Positions 52,165-64,000 of a stretch of DNA of 64,000 bases are shown piece after piece. A program made the translations under genes and the position numbers. Positions within the stretch are counted from its first letter, which is position 1; every line of letters starts with the position of its first letter. The notes under the pieces are model-generated. The model saw only the letters and a list, made by a program, of their open reading frames with translations. It did no database searches and was not told where the DNA came from. This DNA is from Intestinimonas butyriciproducens (GTDB taxonomy: Bacteria; Bacillota; Clostridia; Oscillospirales; Butyricicoccaceae), in the NCBI RefSeq assembly GCF_016901775.1, contig NZ_JACJKW010000015.1, positions 1-64,000 of the forward strand, in the 5' to 3' direction.

Positions 52165-55100
52165 ATGGCACATTTTATTGGGTCTGATCCTCATACGGAT
52201 AATTGGGGAGAAGATTATGTCATTGAGAAATGCGTGGAGTATCTGGACGACTCCTGCATCATTTATCGCAATAGAGAGGTTTTCGGCACGCAGTTTGATG
52301 TGTGCATTTTGCTTCCTGATCAGGGGATTGCCGTGATCGAGGTCAAGGCCTGGCGGCCGCAAACCATTCAGCGGGTGGAAAATGGAGACAGAATCGTCAT
52401 CCGGACTTCTTCCGGAGGGGAAGAGGGTGCAAGTCCCACGAAGCAGGCCCGGGGATATGTGTTTTCATTGCGCAATCGAATCCGTCAGAAAACGGGAAAG
52501 ACGCCATTTATCTTTCCTCTGGTTTGTTTTCCCCAGCTGACAGCGGAGGAATATCAGAATAAGCATCTGGAATCTGTTTGTGAACCGGAGACCACACTGC
52601 TGAAAGACGACTTTGTCAACAAAGCCGCTTTGTATCGGAAAATGAACCTGGCCATGGGCAATGGCCAGAGGAGCCTTTCCCATTGCAATCCATTGGACAA
52701 GCAGCTCATGCTTCAGGTGCGGCAGATTTTTGAGTCGGAATTGGATCTGAGCAGCCTGGATGAAGACAAAAAAGAAGAGATGGTGCGCACCGTCCCGCTG
52801 GAAAGGGATACCATATACTCACTTTTTTATTTTTTCCAAAAAGGCGAGCATCCCTCCCAGGAACAGATCCGACAGATTGTGCAATACTATCTGGATGGAA
52901 CGAAGATCACCGCTGTTGTACGGGATAGGGCTTTAATGGAACAACTGGTGCAGGCGATCGCAGGGGCCCTGACGCAACGGGGGCTTACAGCCTGGGGAGA
53001 AAATCTGAAGCTGTGTCTGGAAGAAGAAAAAACGGAAAAAATTTCCTCGCAATCAGAATATCGTATCTTTAACTGTCTGATCGGCCTGGCCGATGATGGG
53101 CTCAGCGGAGATATTCCGTCTTTTTGTGTGGCCGATGGCAAGACAGAAGGGGAAGAGGAAAACCGGCGTCTCCATGAGATCGGCCAGCACAGCGCCTTTA
53201 ACTGGGAGCAATACCAAATAGAGCACGCAGAAGCATCGAAAAATATTCTGATCCGGGCCGGCGCCGGTACCGGAAAAACATATACCATGATTTCCCGCAT
53301 CGGTTTTCTTTGTCGGACACAAAGCTGCAATGTGCAGGAGATGGCCAATCGCATTGTGATGATCACCTTTACCAACGATGCGGCCAATCAGATGAAGGAG
53401 AAAATCAAGCAATATTTCAACAACTTCTATCTGCTCACCGGCAATGTAAATTATTTGCAATTTATGGGCTTGATCGACAATATGCGCATCAGCACCATTC
53501 ATTCCTATGGCAAATACCTGATTTCCCTGTTGGGGATGGAGCTGGGGTATGGTGCGGAACTCCATGTCACATCGGGGGAGTACATCAGAAAGCAGATTGT
53601 GGAAGAAAAGCTGGACCAATACCTGGAAGAAAAGGTAAGACAGCATGGTGACAACTACACAGCCAAACTGGGCCAGCCGGTGTATGCCATACAGAATAAT
53701 ATTCTGGAGTTTATTAACCATCTTCACAATCAAAGCGTGGATGTGCAGAATGTGGATGCATCTAGCTTTGGCGAGCTGGATGGTCAGCTGGGCTGGGATG
53801 GCGCAAAGGAACTGCACCAGCTGTTTGCATCCTTGGTTCCCGATGTGGAGAAGGCCTATTCGGCGCAGCTGCTCAAAGAAAATCAGATCCATCTGAGCAC
53901 CATGATGTCGGTGCTGAAGCGATGCATTCAGAATCCGGACAATGTGGAGCGGCTGCGGAAGATGCAGACCGGCACACCCCAGTTTATGTTTGTGGATGAG
54001 TTTCAAGATACTGACGATGTGCAGATCGAAACACTAAAATCCATTGCACAGCTGCTGCAATATAAATTGTTTGTGGTGGGTGATATCAAACAATGCATCT
54101 ACCGGTTCCGAGGTGCAAAGGAAAAGGCCTTTGATCAGCTGCATATTGAAGAAACAACAGATCAATGGCTGACATTCTCTCTCACCAAAAACTTCAGAAC
54201 CGACATAGGCCTTTTGGAATTATTTGATAAATCCTTTTCGCAGTGGGGGATCACAGAAGGGGAGAAGGACCCGCTGCTTGTTTATGATCCGCAGGAGGAC
54301 AAGCTGGTCGGAACCAGGTCCTTTAATGAGGACTGCTCTGGTTCTAAGTTTTACAAGGCAATTCATGTGAGTGAAGAGCGATACCTGATGGGGTCGTTGT
54401 TTGAAGAAGTGAAGCGGCAGATTCGCCGCATAGAATGTGAAGAGCAGAATGGCCGTACATTGAGCCGCAAAGAAAAGGAAATTACCATTCTGGTGCGTGA
54501 AAACTGGCAGGCCGATGCCATCCGTCAGGAAGCCAAACGGCGGAAGCTACCTTTTGAAGTCATAACCAATACCGGCGGGGATCTCTACCGCACCGAGCCG
54601 GCGCTGGATATGCTGACCCTGGCCAATGCGCTGCTTCACTATGATGAAGCGGATTATCTTTATACATTGGTGGCTTCCAACTTTATTGGCGGCGGGGCCA
54701 GCAAGGCCTATCTGTATCATCTTCGCCAGAAGCAGAAGGGCGGCTGGCGTCAGCGGAACAAAGTGACCGACACCGATCAGGCCAAGGCGCTGCAGCGCCT
54801 GATTGATGGGAAGTGGGGCGATCAGGAATTTAGCTGGAATAAAGTGGTGCGCAGTTTGCGTATCCAGCCGGTGATGCAGGTGATGCGCACGATCTATTCC
54901 TCCCTGAAACCATGGGTTTCCTATGGGGGAGAGAACCAATGGAAGCAAGATTATTACCGCCAGAATGTAGACCTTTTGTTTGAGCAGCTGATGACAGCCT
55001 GCAACCTGGATGTGCTGACCATCAACTCGCTGGCGGATATTCTGCTGAGTAACATCCGCTCCTGCAAGAATGTGGACAGCCGCAATCCCACCTACAATCC

Positions 55101-55464
55101 GGAAGAAAATCCCATTGTTGTGCGAAGCATCACGGTGCATAAGGCCAAGGGATTGGAGTATGGTTCTGTGATTTTGCCCTATTGCTGGAATGCCATCAAC
55201 CGGCCGAAAAATGCCAATCTGCATATCAGCACATCCCTGGAGGATGGGCATTACCGCATCGGATACCAGATCCGGACAGTGGAAAAGCAAACCTATCAGA
55301 ACAGTTTTTTTGATATGGTCACAGAGGCAGAAGAGCGGCAGCGGGAAGAAATGCGCATTCTTTATGTGGCAATGACCCGGGCCATACGGTCCTTTTCGTG
55401 GCTGATAGTGGACAACAAAAACACAGTAAGCTGGCAAAGCATGATTTGGGAGGGGGAAGTATAA
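52165..55464 (+). CDS. NERD nuclease-UvrD helicase fusion, gene 1 of the helicase operon
   Basis: A 1099-residue protein. The N-terminus (about 10-125) is a NERD nuclease-related domain with D45 in FDVCILLPDQ and E59-x-K61 in AVIEVKAW, a PD-(D/E)XK-type site. After a ~230-residue linker the UvrD/AddA-type helicase has Walker A RAGAGTGKT (~364), IVMITFTNDAANQMKEKI, STIHSYGK, Walker B MFVDEFQDTDD (~609), VGDIKQCIYRFRGA, SITVHKAKGLEY (~987) and ILYVAMTRA (~1065). All motor motifs look intact. It overlaps the AddB-like gene (TAATG), forming an AddAB-like pair with the nuclease moved to the N-terminus. The start follows only a weak RBS. Confidence 0.85.
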   Translation: MAHFIGSDPHTDNWGEDYVIEKCVEYLDDSCIIYRNREVFGTQFDVCILLPDQGIAVIEVKAWRPQTIQRVENGDRIVIRTSSGGEEGASPTKQARGYVFSLRNRIRQKTGKTPFIFPLVCFPQLTAEEYQNKHLESVCEPETTLLKDDFVNKAALYRKMNLAMGNGQRSLSHCNPLDKQLMLQVRQIFESELDLSSLDEDKKEEMVRTVPLERDTIYSLFYFFQKGEHPSQEQIRQIVQYYLDGTKITAVVRDRALMEQLVQAIAGALTQRGLTAWGENLKLCLEEEKTEKISSQSEYRIFNCLIGLADDGLSGDIPSFCVADGKTEGEEENRRLHEIGQHSAFNWEQYQIEHAEASKNILIRAGAGTGKTYTMISRIGFLCRTQSCNVQEMANRIVMITFTNDAANQMKEKIKQYFNNFYLLTGNVNYLQFMGLIDNMRISTIHSYGKYLISLLGMELGYGAELHVTSGEYIRKQIVEEKLDQYLEEKVRQHGDNYTAKLGQPVYAIQNNILEFINHLHNQSVDVQNVDASSFGELDGQLGWDGAKELHQLFASLVPDVEKAYSAQLLKENQIHLSTMMSVLKRCIQNPDNVERLRKMQTGTPQFMFVDEFQDTDDVQIETLKSIAQLLQYKLFVVGDIKQCIYRFRGAKEKAFDQLHIEETTDQWLTFSLTKNFRTDIGLLELFDKSFSQWGITEGEKDPLLVYDPQEDKLVGTRSFNEDCSGSKFYKAIHVSEERYLMGSLFEEVKRQIRRIECEEQNGRTLSRKEKEITILVRENWQADAIRQEAKRRKLPFEVITNTGGDLYRTEPALDMLTLANALLHYDEADYLYTLVASNFIGGGASKAYLYHLRQKQKGGWRQRNKVTDTDQAKALQRLIDGKWGDQEFSWNKVVRSLRIQPVMQVMRTIYSSLKPWVSYGGENQWKQDYYRQNVDLLFEQLMTACNLDVLTINSLADILLSNIRSCKNVDSRNPTYNPEENPIVVRSITVHKAKGLEYGSVILPYCWNAINRPKNANLHISTSLEDGHYRIGYQIRTVEKQTYQNSFFDMVTEAEERQREEMRILYVAMTRAIRSFSWLIVDNKNTVSWQSMIWEGEV

Positions 55465-58430
55465 TGTCCTATAAAATTTATACATATACCGATCCCTACC
55501 GGCTACACGAGACAGATTTCTGGGAGGAGATTCAGGCCATCCCTCATCTGTGCTCATCCCGTACTCTGGTCAATGGCCTGGTGGATGTGATGCAGGACAG
55601 CATCCACTGCTTGATCTGTCCATTGGATGAGATCATTGGCGACAAAAGGGTATTCCGCTCCTGGACAAGAAATATCACAGGCCAGATCCAACAGTATGGA
55701 TATCTGACCAGTGTGTATGCACAACTGCCTGAAAACGATAAGACCGGTGAATTTGACGATGCCTTTCTGTCGGCGCTGAAGCACAATAAAAATTCCATGC
55801 TGGAAGCCATCCGCCTTTTTGTGGAATTGGATATTCCTGCGGCGTCGCTGCATCCGGAGGCGGCCAACAAGGAACAACGGCTGTTCATCCAGCTTCTGAG
55901 GGGGATACAGGAAGAAAAGAATCCGTTGTTTGCTTTTCCGGCCCCGCCCACCATTCCGGTGATGAAACAGGTGATTCGGGACAAAGCCGCCCAGGAAAAA
56001 GAGGATTTTCAAAACAGAAACCAGGAAAGCTCCAGACGAAATCAGGAATTTTACCGCAAACGGCTGGCCATGTATGACAGAGGCATTGCTGCGGCGGAAA
56101 AGTGGAGCGGAGAAAAACTTGTCATCCATGGGGTGCATCAGTTTTCTCCCATACAACTGCGGTTTATCATAGCTCTGGAGCAGCAAGGCACAGAGATCAT
56201 TTTTCTGCACAATTTCCAGGAAGAGTTTCCAGCGATGTATTCTTCCTGGAATTATATCTACCAATATTTTGGAGCGGAAACCCACGCAGACCAGAACATC
56301 AAGACCTATCGGGTGCCGGGCCAGCTGCCCAGACCGGGACACGCCTTGGCCGAAGCCATGGGCCTGATGTGTGAAGATGGCGCAAACCGTCTTAATCCCC
56401 GCTTCAAAGCAAACTTTGCCCTATACCGGGACATGAAGGTGAAGTTCTTTGAAAATGTGTCGGAATATGCGGGGTACATTTCAGATCGGGTGGAGGAAGC
56501 CAAAGAGCGTATAGAAAATGAGCGGTATCTGTATGAGCGGCCGCAGAAAAAGATGGGGACGGCAGCGGTGCTCAGCCGGATGAACGAGCTGATCTACACG
56601 GCCAACAAGGATGTAGAGGAACTGCTGCAGATTTATTATCCGGAATATTCCAGAAACCGTCATTTTCTCTCCTACCCCATTGGCCAGTTTTTTTCGGCGC
56701 TGTACCGTTTGTGGGACTGGGAAGCAGGAGAAATCCGTATTGAATACAGGGATATCCGGGAGTGTCTGAATTCCGGCATTCTGGCTAAATACCAGGCGGC
56801 AGAGCTGCTGAAAACAGCTATGAATTTAGAGCCCCTCTTCGCCAATGTGGCCACCTATTCCCAGCTGATGGAGCGTTTGCACAAGGATTATTTACCTCAG
56901 TATCAGGAGGTTCGGAGGGCCGTTGCAGGCTCCAATGCCTTTCCCTTTCGGCGCATGACTATTTACCAGGAGTACAAGGTTAGTCAGAAAAATATTACCG
57001 ATCTGATGGGGGCTATCCAGTCCATCAATAAGATCGCCTGCGATTTGTTTCGCTCAGACGATCAGCAAATCAGTTCCCACTACCTGTCTTTTCGGAAGCA
57101 CTTCTGCAATTTGGAGAAGTTTTTGAAAGAACGGCAGGACGATCTGGCCAATGAGGAAGAGCGGGATCTGATTACAAAACTGCTGGTGCGGTTTGAAGAG
57201 GTGCAGCTGACTTCCGAATCCAATAAGATGCAGGGTACCTTTGAGGATTTGCGGAATGGAATTTACTTTTTCCTGAAACAAAAGGAACAGCCCGATCCCA
57301 ACTGGTTGGTGAAAAACTTCGAGCAGATCGACGGCGATATCCTGAGCAGCAAGAAACAAAACCGGCCGGGGCAGAACAAGATCTACCACTTTGCCTGCGT
57401 CTCCGACCGGGATATGAACCAATCGGTCAACGATTTGCTGCCCTGGCCCCTTTCTGAGCGCTTTATTGAAACGGCCTATACCCCCATTGATCTGCAATTT
57501 CAGGTGTATTATGCGGCCCTTTGCGAAAGGAGCTCATTTCTTCGCTATTGTCTTTTTTATGGGCTGTATTACAACCAATGCGATTCCTGCATCAGCTATG
57601 TGCGGCAGTACGGGGATGAAACCACCGAAGAATACCATCTGCTCCGGCTTTTGGGGGTGGGGGAGCAGGCGATCTCCCTGGCGGTGTCCCAGGATGACAA
57701 CGCCCTGGTCTGCGCTCTGGAGGGGAAGAACATCACCACCATGCAGTATGACCAATATCAGATGATGGCCATGTTCCTGTGCCCATACAAGTACCTGCTG
57801 GATTATGTCCTCAACCCTCAGCCCGGTGTATCCAACCTGTTTTTGTACGGGCGGCTGTTTGAGAATGTGCTGGTGGCCAATGTGTGGAAGCGGCTGGCCG
57901 GGTTTACAATAGAACAGGCGGCCCGGCAGTATTACAGGGTGGTGAAGCAGGAAGCGGACAAAATAAAACGCTTTTTCCCCTTCTGGCGCAACCGTAATTC
58001 GGAATTTTCCGATCTGATCCGCAGAGCGGACAATTATTTCAAAAATCGGGTAATTACACCGGAGAGCCAGCACAACAGGCAGCAGCCTGTTCGGGAATAC
58101 AGTGAAAGTCATATGAAAATGCGGCAGATCTTTGGAAAGGCCCGTTTTGATGTGGAAAACAATGGGTTAGCGGAAGCTCTCCGGCCAAAGGCTTTTGAAA
58201 GCCTGGTGCAGCAGGAAGGGGAGAAGAGGATCTATTCTCTTCATAAGCTGCCCAAGGCCCAGGCGAAAAATCAGGAACCCATGCGGCAGGCGCTGCTCCA
58301 GGCCACGATGGATTACCTCAACCAATCCAGCACGCCGGAACAGCGGGTGGGGCCGTGGTGTTATAACTGCGGGAACAGGGATATTTGCCTGTATTCCTAT
58401 GCTCCCGAGGCATTTAGCGAGGTGGAATGA
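55464..58430 (+). CDS. AddB-like protein with Fe-S cysteines, gene 2 of the helicase operon
   Basis: A 988-residue protein from the ATG at 55464 (AGGGGGAAG upstream). KLVIHGVHQFSPIQLRFIIA with LEQQGTEIIFLHNFQEEFP resembles the inactive helicase half of AddB. Near the C-terminus C773 (FLCPYKYLLDYVL) and C966, C969, C975 (CYNCGNRDIC) match the four cysteines that hold the Fe-S cluster of AddB/Cas4-type nucleases. The acidic and lysine residues of the PD-(D/E)XK site are not evident between them, so the domain may bind DNA without cutting. It overlaps gene 3 by ATGA (58427-58430). Probable partner of the NERD-UvrD helicase. Confidence 0.72.
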   Translation: MSYKIYTYTDPYRLHETDFWEEIQAIPHLCSSRTLVNGLVDVMQDSIHCLICPLDEIIGDKRVFRSWTRNITGQIQQYGYLTSVYAQLPENDKTGEFDDAFLSALKHNKNSMLEAIRLFVELDIPAASLHPEAANKEQRLFIQLLRGIQEEKNPLFAFPAPPTIPVMKQVIRDKAAQEKEDFQNRNQESSRRNQEFYRKRLAMYDRGIAAAEKWSGEKLVIHGVHQFSPIQLRFIIALEQQGTEIIFLHNFQEEFPAMYSSWNYIYQYFGAETHADQNIKTYRVPGQLPRPGHALAEAMGLMCEDGANRLNPRFKANFALYRDMKVKFFENVSEYAGYISDRVEEAKERIENERYLYERPQKKMGTAAVLSRMNELIYTANKDVEELLQIYYPEYSRNRHFLSYPIGQFFSALYRLWDWEAGEIRIEYRDIRECLNSGILAKYQAAELLKTAMNLEPLFANVATYSQLMERLHKDYLPQYQEVRRAVAGSNAFPFRRMTIYQEYKVSQKNITDLMGAIQSINKIACDLFRSDDQQISSHYLSFRKHFCNLEKFLKERQDDLANEEERDLITKLLVRFEEVQLTSESNKMQGTFEDLRNGIYFFLKQKEQPDPNWLVKNFEQIDGDILSSKKQNRPGQNKIYHFACVSDRDMNQSVNDLLPWPLSERFIETAYTPIDLQFQVYYAALCERSSFLRYCLFYGLYYNQCDSCISYVRQYGDETTEEYHLLRLLGVGEQAISLAVSQDDNALVCALEGKNITTMQYDQYQMMAMFLCPYKYLLDYVLNPQPGVSNLFLYGRLFENVLVANVWKRLAGFTIEQAARQYYRVVKQEADKIKRFFPFWRNRNSEFSDLIRRADNYFKNRVITPESQHNRQQPVREYSESHMKMRQIFGKARFDVENNGLAEALRPKAFESLVQQEGEKRIYSLHKLPKAQAKNQEPMRQALLQATMDYLNQSSTPEQRVGPWCYNCGNRDICLYSYAPEAFSEVE

Positions 58431-61400
58431 CTGTGGTTTGCGGCCAGTATGTACGATGCCCCGTTTTATTTGAGGAAAAAGACGAAAAATTTCCTAGAAA
58501 TTTTATCCTGGCCAAGGTCATCGGGGTCAACGACCTTTCGGAAACGGTGACGGTAAAAATCCATGACCTTTGCGGGACCAGAAAGCTCTATGAGCACATC
58601 TTTGCAAAAGGGGATACACCGGAGTTTCCCCATGGCAGCGTGGCCCGTTGCCATGGCTGCAAAGGGGCCAGGGTGATGACGCCCGACGGCTGGGGCAAGA
58701 TCCTGACGGCCAACCCCCATCAGCCGGAGGATGTGTATTTTTCCTATTATGTCACCCTCTACAATGGCGAGATCCGGCGATACACCGAAGACGCACTGGA
58801 GATCGAATACACATCCTGCGATCATTCACCCCTGGAGCAGATGATCCACTATGAATTTCAGAACCCCAGCTGGTATGCACAGCGCTTGCGGGTGAGTGAA
58901 AATATGCACATGGTAAATAATGCCATCTATGGGTTTGATGTGATCTCCGGATGCAGGGTGTTTTTGATGGAGCATCAGATCACCACCGTGGCCAGAGCAT
59001 TGGAAGCAAGGCCTGTGAGGTATATGCTGGCCGATGAAGTTGGATTGGGCAAAACCATCGAGGCCTGTTCCATTATCAAGGTGATGACCAGCGAAAATGC
59101 CGGTTTGCGGGTGCTTTATGTGGTTCCCCGCACTCTGCTGCGGCAATGGCAGGTGGAGCTGAAATACAAGTACAATCTGTATGCCCAGGACGATATGGCG
59201 CTGATCTCCATGGCCAGCCAGTTTATTGTGGCTTTGGAGGACCTGGGGCCTCAGCACCAGGCCTTGCAGGAGGATTGGGATCTATTGCTGGTGGATGAGA
59301 CCCATCGGCTGCTTTCCATGCCGGACAAATACAGCCAAGTGTTTTCCATCAGCAAAAAGACGGAACATGTGCTGCTGCTCAGCGCAACGCCCATACAGGA
59401 CCGGAAGGAAGAGTACCTGAATCTATTGAAACTTTTGCTGCCGGACCAGTACGAAACCATGGAGTTGTCCCGGTTTTCCAAGCTGCTGAACAACCAGGAA
59501 AAGATCCAGCGCCGGGTCAATCGGGTGATGCGGAACATCCATGATTTTGATGACCCGGACCGCCGGGAGGAGATCTTTGCCCTGCTGGAAGAGCTGGCGG
59601 AGATACTGGATGACAAATACCTTCATCGGCGACTGGCCCAGGTGGACAAGGAGGGCGAGGACAAGGGTCTGGAGACGGTGCAGCAGTGCGTGTCGTACAT
59701 CACGGAAAATTACCGTGTGCAGCGAAAGGTCATCCGGAACCGCCGCAGCAGTCTGGGCCTGGCCATCGGGCAGCGGAAGCTGCATGCGCTGTCTTATGCT
59801 CCCTGTTCCAACGAGGAAAACTACGGGGAGATCGATGTTTACCATATTCTGCTACAATCTCTGGCCGACCGGTGCGACGATGCAGAGGATGTGGTCACCA
59901 CGGTGCAGCCATTGCTGATGGCCATGTTCAGTTCCCCCTGGGCCTTGCTCCGGGAGCTGAGACGGCAGGGAATCCAGGACCAGGCGCTGCTGGAAAGCGT
60001 GGAGCTGTGGGTGCAGCAGGCTGAGGACGAAATCCGCATGGCCGATGAATACCTGGACGAGCGGCCCGATGAGATCAAGAGCCGGCTGCTGCGGGCGGTG
60101 GACTACATCGAGCAGGAAATCGATGTGGGCGATGATGAGCCGAGAAAAATCGTGGTGTTTACCCGCTTCCCGGAGACCCATGAGAAATTCCTGGAGCTTC
60201 TGAAGATGCGCCATTTGCAGGCGGTGGCTTTTTGCCAGGGAATGTCCACAGAGGAACTGGAAGAAAGTGTGTATCAGTTCCAGAATGATCCCCAGTGCAA
60301 AATCATCGTTTGCGACGAAAGCGGCGGCGAAGGCCGGAATTTCCAGAACGCCGACTGGATCATCCACCTGGATCTGCCCTGGACGGCCAACGCCATTGAG
60401 CAGAGGATCGGGCGTCTGGACCGCCTGGGGCGGGACGAAGGGCACATGGTGGTTCATTCGGTGGTTCTGTTTGCAGAGGAGACCATGGAAAGCCAGCTGT
60501 TCCAGGTGTGGGACCGGGGCATGGGGCTTTTTGAGGAATCCCTGAGTGGGATGGAGATCATCACCGGAGAGCTGAACGAAGCCATTGCAGAGGCCATGGC
60601 CGACGATCTGCACAACGGCCTGAGCCATGCGCTGGAGGACATCATAGAGATCACAGAGGACGCCAGGGATGCTGTGGAAGAGGAACAGCTTTACGATTCC
60701 GGCGCGCAGATCTATAAACCGCTGGGAATGGCGGTGAACCATATGCTGAAGCTGTACCAGAGCGGCGAGGGAAATCCCTTCCAGGTGTCCATGCTGCAAT
60801 GGGCCACCCAAGCAGGACTTGTGCCGGAAAAGAACGATGAAAGCGGAAAGCTGATTCGCTTTAATGAGAGCCATTTCCGCCCTCATGCGGCCATGCAGGC
60901 CCTGCTGGTGCCCCCCAGCTGGAAAAGATACCGGAACACTCCCAGTATGCGGCGCTCCCATGGGATCCTGGGCACTTTTGACCGGGCCACGGCCATTCAA
61001 AGGGAGGATCTGCTGTTTTTTGCCCCAGGTGATTCGGTTTTTGACAGCATTGTGTGGAATGCATCCCACAACGGCCGCGGGCGCTGCTGCGCCTTTATCG
61101 CCCAGGGGACTTTTGACTATGCCGGGTTTGTTTTTACCTACAACATCGGCCCCAACATTCCCTTTTTGCTGGATCATCGTGTGCCGCTGCCGCTGCTGTC
61201 CCAGTTCGGGGTCTATTTGCCGGCCCATCAGATCCGGGTCTTTTTGCCATTGCGGCGTGAGTATGAGCAGGTTCCGGAAGACACCCTGAATGCCTTTTTG
61301 GGGGAAAGCTATCGTGTGCGCAAAGCGGTGCATCTGGGGGCGCGGGCCGGGGAGGAGGGTACTTCCCGCATAGAACAGTTCATCCAGCACAATCCCTTTG

Positions 61401-61669
61401 ACGAGTGGAGCGCATTGATCCACAGAGCGTCCAAAATGGCATACAAACGGGCCATGGAAAAATGCAAAGAAGAGGCCGACCTGGTGACGGCCAAAAAAGA
61501 GATCATCCGCGTGGTCAATGGATACGAAGCGGAGTATATCTATGCCGGAAAAGATCTGAAGCAGCTGGAAGAGATCAAGGATCACTACCGTGCTATCCTG
61601 CGCTCTCTGGAGCGGCCGGCTGTTTCCCTGGATTCCATTTGCTATATGAAGGTGGTAAACCGCTTGTGA
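58427..61669 (+). CDS. RapA/SNF2-like helicase, gene 3 of the helicase operon
   Basis: A 1080-residue protein. After a ~190-residue N-terminal region with several cysteines (CGQYVRC, CHGC) come SNF2 motifs: LADEVGLGKTIEACSII (~200), LYVVPRTLLRQWQVEL, LLLVDETHRLL (~287), LLLSATPIQDR (~318), IVVFTRFPETHEKFLEL, GEGRNFQNADWIIHLDLPW (~634) and EQRIGRLDRLGR (~660). The last ~400 residues resemble the C-terminal part of RapA-like proteins but are otherwise unfamiliar. It moves on duplex DNA and may displace proteins. From memory it resembles DpdE of 7-deazaguanine restriction systems. It overlaps gene 4 as GTGA (61666-61669). Confidence 0.82.
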   Translation: MTVVCGQYVRCPVLFEEKDEKFPRNFILAKVIGVNDLSETVTVKIHDLCGTRKLYEHIFAKGDTPEFPHGSVARCHGCKGARVMTPDGWGKILTANPHQPEDVYFSYYVTLYNGEIRRYTEDALEIEYTSCDHSPLEQMIHYEFQNPSWYAQRLRVSENMHMVNNAIYGFDVISGCRVFLMEHQITTVARALEARPVRYMLADEVGLGKTIEACSIIKVMTSENAGLRVLYVVPRTLLRQWQVELKYKYNLYAQDDMALISMASQFIVALEDLGPQHQALQEDWDLLLVDETHRLLSMPDKYSQVFSISKKTEHVLLLSATPIQDRKEEYLNLLKLLLPDQYETMELSRFSKLLNNQEKIQRRVNRVMRNIHDFDDPDRREEIFALLEELAEILDDKYLHRRLAQVDKEGEDKGLETVQQCVSYITENYRVQRKVIRNRRSSLGLAIGQRKLHALSYAPCSNEENYGEIDVYHILLQSLADRCDDAEDVVTTVQPLLMAMFSSPWALLRELRRQGIQDQALLESVELWVQQAEDEIRMADEYLDERPDEIKSRLLRAVDYIEQEIDVGDDEPRKIVVFTRFPETHEKFLELLKMRHLQAVAFCQGMSTEELEESVYQFQNDPQCKIIVCDESGGEGRNFQNADWIIHLDLPWTANAIEQRIGRLDRLGRDEGHMVVHSVVLFAEETMESQLFQVWDRGMGLFEESLSGMEIITGELNEAIAEAMADDLHNGLSHALEDIIEITEDARDAVEEEQLYDSGAQIYKPLGMAVNHMLKLYQSGEGNPFQVSMLQWATQAGLVPEKNDESGKLIRFNESHFRPHAAMQALLVPPSWKRYRNTPSMRRSHGILGTFDRATAIQREDLLFFAPGDSVFDSIVWNASHNGRGRCCAFIAQGTFDYAGFVFTYNIGPNIPFLLDHRVPLPLLSQFGVYLPAHQIRVFLPLRREYEQVPEDTLNAFLGESYRVRKAVHLGARAGEEGTSRIEQFIQHNPFDEWSALIHRASKMAYKRAMEKCKEEADLVTAKKEIIRVVNGYEAEYIYAGKDLKQLEEIKDHYRAILRSLERPAVSLDSICYMKVVNRL

Positions 61670-64000
61670 GTTACATTGAATTGTTTTCCGATTACGCCCG
61701 GGGAAAGGAACCGGCCAGCGGGGCAGAAGGCCGGATAGGGGAAGAGTATGCCCGGCTTCTGGGGGAGGGAAAGGTCAGCGAGGCCACCCGGGCCCAGCTT
61801 TGCCTGACCTTTTTCACCCGGTACCGGCAGTACAACAGCGGGGCCATTTCGCGCCAGGATCTGCTGCTGTTTCTCCGGGATTTCATCCTTTTCGTGGGCC
61901 GTTTTCCCATGCCAGCCCCGATGGAGGCCATCATCCGACAAAGCGGAACCGAGTACGGGTTGAGCATTGCAGCAGACGGCTGTGCCGATGCCGCTGACAT
62001 TCTTCCGGAATGGTTTCCCAACCCCGATTTTGTGCATCAGGTGTACGGGCTGGACGACAGCGGGATGGAGCGCCCCGCCCCGGCCGTAGGGGACGGCATC
62101 CTGCGGCGTCACAGCCGCTTCGCCCAATACCGCTCCATCGAGCAGAAGATCGCCGCGCATGCGGCAGTGAATCTTCCAGAAGATGCCACTCTGATGGTGT
62201 CGCTGCCCACAGGCGGCGGCAAAAGTCTGATTACACAGATGGTGTCGGCGGTGTCCCATGGGCTGACGATGGTCATGGTTCCCACCGTGGCGCTGATTTC
62301 CGACCAGTATATGCAGGCGTGTAGCTGTATGATAGAGGAATTCCAGGAGCATATTTTCTGCTATCGGGGCGATACAGGCCCGCGGGAAGCGGAAAAGATG
62401 CTGGGGGAGATCCGAAGCCGAAAGGCGCGGCTGATCTTCACCTCTCCTGAGGCGCTGCTGAAAAATCAGGCGCTAAATCAGGCCCTGCGGAAAGCGGCCC
62501 AGGAGAAATACCTTTGCAATGTGGTCATTGACGAGGCCCATATCGTGCCCGACTGGGGGACCCATTTCAGACCGGATTTCCAGATCTTTTCCGTGGTGCT
62601 GCGAGAGCTGCGGGAGCTGTCCGGCCACAGCATCCGCACCTATCTGCTGTCGGCCACCCTCTCCCAGGATGTGGTCCAGGTCCTGTTCGATCTCTTCGGG
62701 CAGGAGGGGAAGAATGTGGCGTATCGGTGCGACACCCTGCGCAAAGAGCCGCGTTTTGTGTTCAGCGAATGCCGGGATTACCGTCTGCGGGAAAGCCGAG
62801 GGATGGAACTGGTGAAAACCCTTCCCAAACCCCTGATTCTGTATGTGATCGAGCCGGAGGAAGCAGAACGGCTGAAAAAGAAATTCGTGCAGCAGGGATA
62901 CAAGAACATCCAGACTTTCACAGGGGATACCCCCAAAAAACAGCGGGAGCATCTGCTGAAAGCGTGGAAGGACAATCAGATCGATGTGATGATCGCCACT
63001 TCGGCTTTCGGCATGGGAGTGGATAAGCCCAATGTGCGCACCATTGTCCACCGGTGCGTCCCGGAAAATTTGAGCCGGTTTTATCAGGAGGTGGGGCGGT
63101 CCGGGCGGGACGGCCTGCCTGCTCTCAGTGTGCTGCTGCCCTACATGGGCAAAGACGGGCAAAAAAGCGATCTGGATACGGCATTTGGTCTTGTGAACAA
63201 AAGCATTCTGGGCGTGGATAAATTGCTGGTGCGTTGGTACAGCATGGTGCAAAATCCCAGCACCTACCTGGAAGGGGACCGGATGATCGTGGATCTCAGC
63301 ACGGTGCCCACTTCCTTCTCCCCGGAGGATGCCCAGTACGCCGGGGTGCGGAACATGATGTGGAATGTGAATGCTCTTCTCCTTTTGCATCGGGAGCATT
63401 ACATTGACATTCAGGGGGCCCGGTTCATTCCGGAGAAAAACACCTATTCCTTTACTTGCCGGCTGCTGGATACAGAGACCCTGATGGAGGAAGAAAAGCT
63501 CCGCCAGGCTCTGGAGCCAGACCGGCAAAGGGAATACGATATGCGGGTCTATGGGTACCGGCAGATGGCCGACCTGGTGCACAAGCCCAGGGTCCGGTGC
63601 TGGGCCAGAAGGCTGACGGCGCTGTTTCCCCTGGCCGAGGAATTTTGCGGCGGCTGTCCTGTGCATCCCCGGAAGCCGGAAAACGAGGAGGACGACATCA
63701 AAATCCGGGAGGCCTTTCTCCTGGAATGGAGCGCCGCAGCCCCAAAGGCCCCCTTGCAAAAACTGTTTGGCAGCCTTCACGATGTGGTGGTTCCGGTTGA
63801 AAACTGGAACAGCGTGGATCTGAATGGGCTGGTGCGCCGGGCCAATGAATGGGGCATCGGCTGCGTGGTTTTGCCCCAGGTGCAGGGCGTTACGGCCCTT
63901 TGCGAATCCATGCTCCTGTCCGCTGATGAGTTTCTGGTGATCGGCCCTCTGGCGCCGTGGCTCTTTCAAAAGGGCGTTCTGATTTTGTTTGATGAGGATG
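61666..64000 (+). CDS. RecQ-like helicase, gene 4 of the helicase operon (partial, runs off the edge)
   Basis: A GTG start at 61666 overlaps gene 3; 778 codons are open to the window end. A ~170-residue N-terminal extension of unknown type precedes the motor: LMVSLPTGGGKSLITQMV (~180), VVIDEAHIVPDWGTHFRPDF (~288), TYLLSATLSQ, IATSAFGMGVDKPNVRTIVH and FYQEVGRSGRDG, the classic RecQ order. A zinc-like RCWARRLTALFPLAEEFCGG with CPVHP follows, with three cysteines. The C-terminal ~130 residues are unfamiliar. From memory it resembles DpdF. All motor motifs look intact. The protein and any further genes continue beyond the window. Confidence 0.82.
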   Translation, partial: MSYIELFSDYARGKEPASGAEGRIGEEYARLLGEGKVSEATRAQLCLTFFTRYRQYNSGAISRQDLLLFLRDFILFVGRFPMPAPMEAIIRQSGTEYGLSIAADGCADAADILPEWFPNPDFVHQVYGLDDSGMERPAPAVGDGILRRHSRFAQYRSIEQKIAAHAAVNLPEDATLMVSLPTGGGKSLITQMVSAVSHGLTMVMVPTVALISDQYMQACSCMIEEFQEHIFCYRGDTGPREAEKMLGEIRSRKARLIFTSPEALLKNQALNQALRKAAQEKYLCNVVIDEAHIVPDWGTHFRPDFQIFSVVLRELRELSGHSIRTYLLSATLSQDVVQVLFDLFGQEGKNVAYRCDTLRKEPRFVFSECRDYRLRESRGMELVKTLPKPLILYVIEPEEAERLKKKFVQQGYKNIQTFTGDTPKKQREHLLKAWKDNQIDVMIATSAFGMGVDKPNVRTIVHRCVPENLSRFYQEVGRSGRDGLPALSVLLPYMGKDGQKSDLDTAFGLVNKSILGVDKLLVRWYSMVQNPSTYLEGDRMIVDLSTVPTSFSPEDAQYAGVRNMMWNVNALLLLHREHYIDIQGARFIPEKNTYSFTCRLLDTETLMEEEKLRQALEPDRQREYDMRVYGYRQMADLVHKPRVRCWARRLTALFPLAEEFCGGCPVHPRKPENEEDDIKIREAFLLEWSAAAPKAPLQKLFGSLHDVVVPVENWNSVDLNGLVRRANEWGIGCVVLPQVQGVTALCESMLLSADEFLVIGPLAPWLFQKGVLILFDED

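What the first reader, a model, noticed from the sequence alone, without database searches (positions are those of the whole stretch)
52165..64000. Four-gene helicase/nuclease operon: NERD-UvrD, AddB-like, SNF2-like, RecQ-like
Seen: four large genes with TAATG, ATGA and GTGA overlaps, so one co-translated unit. Gene 1 has a NERD nuclease site (D45, E59-x-K61) on a UvrD motor; gene 2 is AddB-like with Fe-S cysteines C773/C966/C969/C975; genes 3 and 4 are intact SNF2/RapA-like and RecQ-like motors. Known: AddAB processes broken or foreign DNA; DpdE/DpdF-type helicases act in modified-base restriction systems. Inference: one complex combining an AddAB-like engine with two further helicases, a plausible anti-phage or plasmid-restriction system. 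I know of no named system with exactly these four parts.
Basis: partly seen in the sequence, partly recalled or inferred. Interest (0 to 1): 0.9.

Follow-up and report, generated by a model that had tools for sequence, protein, structure and literature searches.

The report
Sulfur-marked DNA with borrowed restriction genes
The four genes are part of a conserved bacterial cluster in which genes that put sulfur into the DNA backbone sit beside a likely DNA-destroying module related to one from a different DNA-marking system; this suggests, but does not yet prove, a new kind of partner for sulfur-marked DNA.

Summary
The four genes are real, but the window cuts the operon. The contig continues it with DpdG-like, DpdH-like and a 221-aa gene; 66 bp further lies a convergent dndBCDEA operon for phosphorothioate (PT) modification of DNA. 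Gene 1 is NERD-UvrD, gene 2 an AddB-fold protein, genes 3 and 4 are DpdE-like and DpdF-like.

Of 80 related loci from named genomes, 33 hold dnd genes within the locus; 31 of these also hold the AddB gene. None of the 25 loci labelled Dpd (7-deazaguanine) does. In the DpdH tree 39 dnd-linked rows stand on one side of a branch against 26 Dpd rows, support 99. DpdA was not found in this genome; DndH and DndF were not found in it, nor above cut-off in 36 of 37 other carriers.

Best reading: a PT-based restriction-modification system in which DpdEFGHI plus NERD-UvrD/AddB takes the place of DndFGH. No activity was tested. Ten searches of an open-access library found no description of it; subscription papers and supplements were not searched. 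Verdict: new variant of a known kind, of high interest.

The parts
52165..55464 (+). Gene 1, NERD nuclease domain plus UvrD/AddA-like helicase, 1099 aa
   Evidence: Pfam NERD and UvrD-helicase; E16/D45/E59/K61 invariant in 32 of 32 aligned sequences
55464..58430 (+). Gene 2, AddB-like protein with four conserved cysteines and no recognisable nuclease motif, 988 aa
   Evidence: fold match to AddB, mainly residues 1-747; cysteines 34-35 of 35, no conserved D..E-x-K between them
58427..61669 (+). Gene 3, DpdE-like SNF2/RapA-type ATPase, 1080 aa
   Evidence: NF041062 399.5 bits, cut-off 500; PADLOC DpdE 275.3 bits
61666..64000 (+). Gene 4, DpdF-like RecQ-type helicase, 833 aa; cut by the window edge, it ends at contig C7:64167. 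The remaining parts of the cluster lie outside the window and are listed with contig coordinates in the full report.
   Evidence: NF041063 507.3 bits, cut-off 550, full length; L002

Best explanation
A phosphorothioate restriction-modification system with a restriction half that is not DndFGH. DndA/C/D/E put sulfur into the DNA backbone at a short motif of the host chromosome, with DndB as likely regulator (known for the family, inferred here). The seven-gene operon attacks DNA that lacks the mark: DpdG probably contacts the DNA, DpdH is its NTPase partner, DpdE and DpdF move along and open the duplex, the NERD domain cuts, and the UvrD/AddB pair unwinds and degrades from the break. Shown here: gene content, intact NERD and UvrD motifs, AddB fold, no recognisable nuclease motif in the AddB-like protein, conserved linkage to dnd. 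Inferred: every biochemical step, which subunit reads the mark, and that absence rather than presence of the mark triggers attack.
For: DndB, C, D and E exceed curated cut-offs. 31 of 33 loci with dnd in the locus have AddB; 35 of 35 AddB loci have it before DpdE on the same strand. Of those 35 loci, 31 hold dnd, in three DndC, DndD and DndA lie upstream of UvrD on its strand within 0.9 kb, and in one a dnd operon sits beside the gene-7 end on another contig of the same genome. Dnd-linked DpdH rows stand on one side of a branch against all 26 Dpd rows, while dnd lies convergent, co-directional or upstream, at least 4 changes on the tree. Gene-distance correlation DpdH-DndC r 0.86, AddB-DpdE r 0.98. 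DpdA not found in the own genome. DndH: 1 of 38 genomes, DndF above cut-off in the same one, Brevibacillus, where by coordinates both follow dndA on its strand.
Against: No activity, expression or PT content was measured. Linkage and correlated distances also follow from inheritance as one block. A UvrD/AddB pair exists on a plasmid record without matches to DpdE-I or Dnd. DpdE-H fall below NCBI's equivalog cut-offs, so their roles may differ from those in Dpd systems. Of 42 rows in the DpdH clade, L030 has no DndC in its genome, L024 and L042 are truncated and their genomes gave none, and L032 is counted on DndB alone, with only a weak DndC match (27 bits) in its genome. In the three loci with dnd upstream DndE gave no match and DndD only 112-183 bits. 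Outside the clade, 15 genomes with DpdH also hold an above-cut-off DndC elsewhere. Several carriers are metagenome bins.
Confidence: 0.6

Rival explanations
1. PT-sensing defence: the module is switched on by the mark, as described for SspE and DndI, rather than attacking unmarked DNA.
For: SspE and DndI are published PT-sensing partners of PT modification (titles and starts of abstracts of PMC8092258 and PMC11662687, listings). The DpdG-like fold has its longest structural match in SspB (Z 7.8, 214 residues), a protein of a PT system.
Against: No ORF examined beside the operon matched SspE; DndI was not sought by a profile. The Z value is below the level that marks a relationship, and SspB is listed among the modification proteins (SspABCD), not as the effector.
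Confidence: 0.2
2. Two independent defence systems that share an island: an orphan Dnd modification and a Dpd-type helicase-nuclease system that needs no mark or another mark.
For: A type II CRISPR-Cas9 locus lies next door, so the region collects defence genes. Solitary dndBCDE clusters are known (PMC8569181, passages). 15 genomes outside the clade hold DpdH and an above-cut-off DndC; in the 12 of them whose DndC surroundings I fetched no DpdE or DpdH match lies there.
Against: 39 of 42 rows of the DpdH clade are dnd-linked, one of them on DndB alone, in several arrangements; DpdA gave no match in the own genome nor in 31 of 33 genomes with dnd in the locus.
Confidence: 0.12
3. A recombination or repair unit: NERD-UvrD/AddB as a second AddAB that repairs breaks, not a defence effector.
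For: AddB fold and AddA/RecB-like motor. A DinB-type polymerase and a small protein that by eye resembles YolD lie upstream; DNA polymerase IV and a YolD-like protein are annotated beside the pair on the Geobacillus plasmid.
Against: Rare: AddB profile in 1 of 391 genomes of the class, the own one; constant place before DpdE and linkage to dnd; NERD in place of an AddA-type nuclease domain.
Confidence: 0.05

Closest known systems
Dnd PT restriction-modification (DndABCDE with DndFGH)
   Same: the modification half: DndB, C, D, E above curated cut-offs, DndA-like gene in the same operon
   Different: DndH and DndF not found in the own genome; a DpdEFGHI plus NERD-UvrD/AddB operon stands in their place
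Dpd 7-deazaguanine modification and restriction system
   Same: genes E-F-G-H and a smaller gene after H in the order seen in Enterobacter and Paenibacillus clusters
   Different: no DpdA in the genome; no match on the own contig to reference DpdA, B, D or K, and to DpdJ only a 59-64-aa helicase stretch inside DpdF; all four proteins below the equivalog cut-offs; UvrD/AddB pair instead
AddAB / RecBCD helicase-nucleases
   Same: AddB fold, UvrD-type partner encoded directly before it, conserved cysteine quartet as in AddB (that comparison is recalled)
   Different: nuclease is an N-terminal NERD domain on the motor subunit; AddA equivalog score 122.5 of 707.65; no conserved nuclease motif in the AddB-like protein
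PbeABCD, SspE, DndI, BREX type 4 (other PT-linked defence)
   Same: PT modification with an effector other than DndFGH
   Different: other effector genes, as described in PMC10853773 (sections and passages), PMC12707154 (passages), PMC12839542 (passages) and the listing entry of PMC11662687
BRIGADE and BREX-Related Capture (BRC), published hybrids with Dpd components
   Same: Dpd-like parts combined with another defence system (PMC12458937, abstract and passages; PMC12839542, passages)
   Different: in the passages seen they are hybrids with ARMADA or with BREX and HerA/FtsK, not with PT modification

Membership tests
Dnd phosphorothioate modification module | dndC, dndD, dndE present and above curated cut-offs | tested here: met
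   595.1 of 290.4, 445.1 of 245.85, 115.7 of 71.85 bits
Dnd phosphorothioate modification module | dndA-type cysteine desulfurase | tested here: inconclusive
   best family is DndA, 423.7 bits, below the equivalog cut-off of 480
Dnd phosphorothioate modification module | PT present in the organism's DNA | not testable with these tools
   needs LC-MS or PT sequencing
DndABCDE-FGH restriction-modification | DndF and DndH present | tested here: not met
   TIGR03237 and TIGR03238: no match in the own genome; DndG not searched
Dpd system | DpdA transglycosylase | tested here: not met
   NF041059: 0 of 1, own genome 99.5% complete
Dpd system | DpdE, F, G, H above NCBI equivalog cut-offs | tested here: not met
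   399.5/500, 507.3/550, 29.6/80 and 254.5/450 bits
Dpd system | gene order E-F-G-H followed by a smaller gene | tested here: met
   own operon against Enterobacter and Paenibacillus
AddAB | AddB fold | tested here: met
   3u4q_B top Foldseek match E 5e-11, 4cej_B Z 14.2; residues beyond 747 barely tested
AddAB | RecB-type nuclease motif in AddB | tested here: not met
   no conserved D..E-x-K between C773 and C966 in 35 aligned sequences
AddAB | AddA/RecB equivalog | tested here: not met
   gene 1: AddA 122.5 of 707.65, RecB 148 of 696.05 bits

The most novel reading that the evidence does not exclude
DpdEFGHI is a mark-independent restriction engine: the same core is coupled to different self-marks (7-deazaguanine bases or backbone sulfur) and to different nuclease sets (DpdJ/K in Dpd loci; NERD-UvrD/AddB, or in two dnd-linked loci a NERD-helicase with a second protein), so that self-recognition is plugged in rather than built in.
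Probability: 0.4. Interest if true: 0.88.

Novelty: new variant of a known kind. Interest (0 to 1): 0.76.

Why it matters
Many dnd clusters lack DndFGH, and what their PT mark is for has been an open question (PMC8569181, passages; PMC11931770, passages; PMC10853773, abstract and sections 17 and 24). Here is a specific, conserved candidate partner, chiefly in Bacillota (28 of the 33 carriers with dnd in the locus, 17 of them Lachnospiraceae), with named carriers in which it can be tested. It also ties two chemically unrelated self-marks to one restriction core.

Tried and rejected
Searches without result: single-protein DpdH query in genome contigs, AddB in viral contigs as a protein and as an alignment. 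AddB in the phage collection gave one unverified gut scaffold. AddB profile in 391 genomes of the class (E 1e-20): own genome only. DpdH in 394 genomes of the order: own genome only.

Rejected: the idea that L019, L021 and L035 lack dnd (DndC, DndD and DndA lie upstream of UvrD). The idea that cyanobacterial genomes with both DpdH and DndC are further cases: 13 of the 15 genomes outside the clade with an above-cut-off DndC are cyanobacteria; I fetched stretches of at most 19 kb around DndC in 10 of the 13 (three, G459, G466 and G467, not fetched) and found no DpdE or DpdH match, but DpdF matches of 42-43 bits in three and a DpdJ match of 64 bits in one. More distant linkage is not excluded. 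The AddB-like gene of the Paenibacillus dpd plasmid is not a close relative of gene 2 (E 0.011).

Limits: the 80 loci are the best 80 of 152 found with two DpdH patterns, so they are neither random nor independent. The DpdH tree holds 79 rows: own, one Paenibacillus plasmid row, and 77 of the 80 loci; L043, L044 and L072 were left out because the DpdH read was under 850 aa. It is a quick tree without mixture model, and the program warned of long branches that meet. For the arrangement count L034 was coded from another contig and L032 from DndB alone. The Mantel values rest on 31 loci, or 24 after thinning near-copies, and do not separate functional linkage from inheritance in one block. The label 'Dpd' uses thresholds on DpdJ, DpdK or DpdA matches; 14 rows have neither label after reassignment. 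DpdJ, K and D were sought on the own contig, not in the whole own genome. Literature: ten full-text searches of an open-access library; no supplements were read. 'DpdF' with 'phosphorothioate' returned no paper.

Geobacillus plasmid, gut scaffold and own contig were searched again with the reference proteins.
Full report
What is there. The window is contig C7:1-64000 of a 2.58-Mb genome, and the contig runs on to 82,208. The four reported genes are correct and tightly packed. The operon continues past the window edge with DpdG-like, DpdH-like and a 221-aa gene. A convergent operon follows on the minus strand: dndB, dndC, dndD, dndE and a dndA-like gene. The gap between the two stop codons is 66 bp and holds a perfect 16-bp hairpin. 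Beyond lies Cas9 with Cas1, Csn2 and a CRISPR array.

Parts outside the window, in contig C7 numbering, which continues the window's. Plus strand: gene 4 DpdF-like to 64167; gene 5 DpdG-like 64173-64967 (NF041064 29.6 bits, cut-off 80); gene 6 DpdH-like 64954-68037 (NF041065 254.5 bits, cut-off 450; PADLOC DpdH 121.9 bits); gene 7, called DpdI here by position, 68031-68696 (alignment of 28). Hairpin 68716-68754, read by eye, possible shared terminator. Minus strand: dndA-like 68763-69893 (TIGR03235 423.7 bits, cut-off 480); dndE 69897-70280 (115.7, cut-off 71.85); dndD 70277-72271 (445.1, cut-off 245.85); dndC 72287-73792 (595.1, cut-off 290.4; SGGKDS motif); dndB 73776-74810 (362, cut-off 328; DGQHR motif); scores.

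Identity of the parts. Gene 1 carries NERD and UvrD domains with an invariant NERD site in 32 of 32 aligned sequences, own included. Gene 2 has no family match in Pfam, PADLOC or NCBIfam at the thresholds used (at E 10 one weak Pfam match), but its predicted structure (mean pLDDT 81) matches AddB of AddAB first with Z 14.2. The match covers mainly residues 1-747. Its four cysteines are conserved in 34 to 35 of 35 aligned sequences, and no nuclease motif is conserved between them. So the AddB scaffold seems to have lost its own nuclease site, and the NERD domain of its partner is the obvious cutter; this is inference. Genes 3 to 6 are relatives of DpdE, F, G and H, each below the NCBI equivalog cut-off. 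A DpdG relative (L013, 50% identical to the own protein) is predicted with confidence (pLDDT 90.5) as what I read as three winged-helix units; its longest structural match is SspB (Z 7.8, 214 of 257 residues, rmsd 6.6), followed from Z 6.8 down by winged-helix domains of other proteins and by recognition domains of restriction enzymes such as FokI. Foldseek alone gave no match at E 0.001, and Z under 8 is common for unrelated folds, so this only suggests DNA contact.

Conservation. A scan of genomes of 84,980 species with a DpdH alignment found 152 relatives; the best 80 were kept and annotated by tblastn. AddB occurs in 35 of 80 loci, in all 35 before DpdE on the same strand (median gap 13 bases, range -85 to 1250). 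Dnd genes lie within 33 of the 80 loci, 31 of them with AddB. Among the 59 loci with enough flank, 30 have both, 2 AddB only, 2 dnd only, 25 neither. The two AddB-only loci (L019, L035), and L021 with less flank, have DndC, DndD and DndA upstream of UvrD on its strand, without a DndE match; for L034 a dnd operon lies beside the gene-7 end on another contig of the same genome. The two dnd-only loci (L026, L089) have a NERD-helicase and a second, unidentified protein in place of UvrD/AddB (Pfam for L026). None of the 25 loci labelled Dpd has AddB. Gene 1 was found in 34 of 34 genomes searched that carry AddB (the 35th, L051, was not searched), split with several stops in one (L041) and with one TAA inside the aligned stretch in four others, and in neither of L026 and L089 at E 1e-40.

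History. In the DpdH tree 34 dnd-labelled rows and 8 unlabelled ones form one group. Of the 8, five turned out to be dnd-linked (L019, L021, L034, L035, and L032 on a DndB match alone, with only a weak DndC match in its genome), two are truncated and their genomes gave no DndC (L024, L042), and one (L030) has no DndC in its genome. With these, 39 dnd rows stand against 26 Dpd rows on one branch, support 99. The dnd operon lies convergent, co-directional or upstream, at least 4 changes on the tree, so the link survived rearrangement. Distance matrices agree: AddB-DpdE r 0.98, DpdH-DndC r 0.86, both p 0.0005, the smallest value 2000 permutations allow. The lower value for dnd fits some exchange of the modification half.

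Other marks and partners. DpdA gave no match in the own genome. Among the 33 genomes with dnd in the locus it is above the cut-off in 1 (L050, a fragment with a stop) and weak in 1 (L089); among 10 further genomes 0; among 7 Dpd-type controls 7. Conversely, of 47 genomes without dnd in the locus 19 have an above-cut-off DndC: the four just named (L019, L021, L034, L035) and 15 outside the clade. I fetched the DndC surroundings of 12 of those 15; no DpdE or DpdH match lies there. DndH was not found in the own genome and in 36 of 37 others, DndF not above its cut-off in the same 36, with one weak match. The exception, Brevibacillus dissolubilis (L016), has both; by coordinates they follow dndA on the same strand, so one modification operon there may serve two restriction modules.

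Distribution. Of the 33 carriers with dnd in the locus 28 are Bacillota, 17 of them Lachnospiraceae; one each is labelled Bacteroidota, Actinomycetota and Pseudomonadota, two unassigned. Some are metagenome bins and may be misassigned. The system is rare in the samples drawn: 1 of 394 genomes of the order by DpdH, 1 of 391 of the class by AddB, each time the own genome. A UvrD/AddB pair also exists on a Geobacillus plasmid without NERD and without matches to DpdE-I or Dnd and, with NERD, on an unverified human-gut scaffold where another reading frame follows AddB before the record ends.

Mechanism. See Best explanation. Known for relatives: DndFGH binds, translocates along and nicks DNA that lacks PT (PMC10470545, abstract and passages). 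That the Dpd-type operon does the equivalent is inference from position, conservation and enzyme types.

Print record. Rakesh et al. 2024 (PMC10853773; abstract, outline, sections 17 and 24, passages) show that dnd modification is often decoupled from DndFGH and lies beside other nucleases, NERD included; 'dpd', 'UvrD', 'AddB' and 'RecQ' do not occur in its main text. Bell et al. 2025 (PMC12458937; abstract, outline, passages) treat Dpd, DISARM and relatives and name a Dpd hybrid, BRIGADE; 'phosphorothio' and 'DpdE' do not occur. A 2026 BREX survey (PMC12839542; passages) treats PT-based BREX and a BREX hybrid with Dpd parts (BRC); 'UvrD', 'AddB' and 'RecQ' do not occur. A 2025 review lists dndFGH/sspFGH, sspE and pbeABCD as PT restriction branches (PMC12707154, passages). 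GATOR-GC (PMC11888242, one passage) lists dpdE, F, H and J domains of dpd islands and no PT link. The supplements of these papers were not read, so a mention there cannot be excluded.

Noticed in passing
contig C7:75285-82023 (L002:15286-19901, L003:1-2123), outside the window: Type II CRISPR-Cas9 locus, with Csn2 probably II-A: Cas9, Cas1, a Cas2-like ORF (by eye), Csn2 and 12 repeats at 65-67 nt spacing, beyond dndB.
   Followed up: partly
window:48025-49596 (+): C-terminal half of a type III restriction (Res) protein, matching PADLOC REase_III positions 483-986 of 989 only; looks like a remnant.
   Followed up: no
window:49860-51793 (-): DinB-type polymerase with a small protein that by eye resembles YolD, next to the UvrD/AddB pair; DNA polymerase IV and a YolD-like protein are annotated beside the related pair on the Geobacillus plasmid (L005).
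   Followed up: partly
L030:13849-19742, L057:13811-21653: DpdE, F and H-like loci without dnd or AddB, followed by two large proteins (helicase and MZB zinc domains in L030) and, in L057, a NERD protein: a further effector combination.
   Followed up: partly
L026:49-3413, L089:168-3354: Dnd-linked DpdEFGHI loci in which a NERD-helicase and a protein with several cysteine pairs replace UvrD/AddB.
   Followed up: partly
genome G398 (L016), C20:336886-345217: Brevibacillus dissolubilis: DndF and DndH follow dndA at the end of the Dpd-type cluster, two candidate restriction modules for one PT operon.
   Followed up: partly
L041 genome (G414), C1:3452123-3455229: Gene 1 of Eubacterium plexicaudatum is split in two pieces with several stops, so this copy may be decaying or misassembled.
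   Followed up: no
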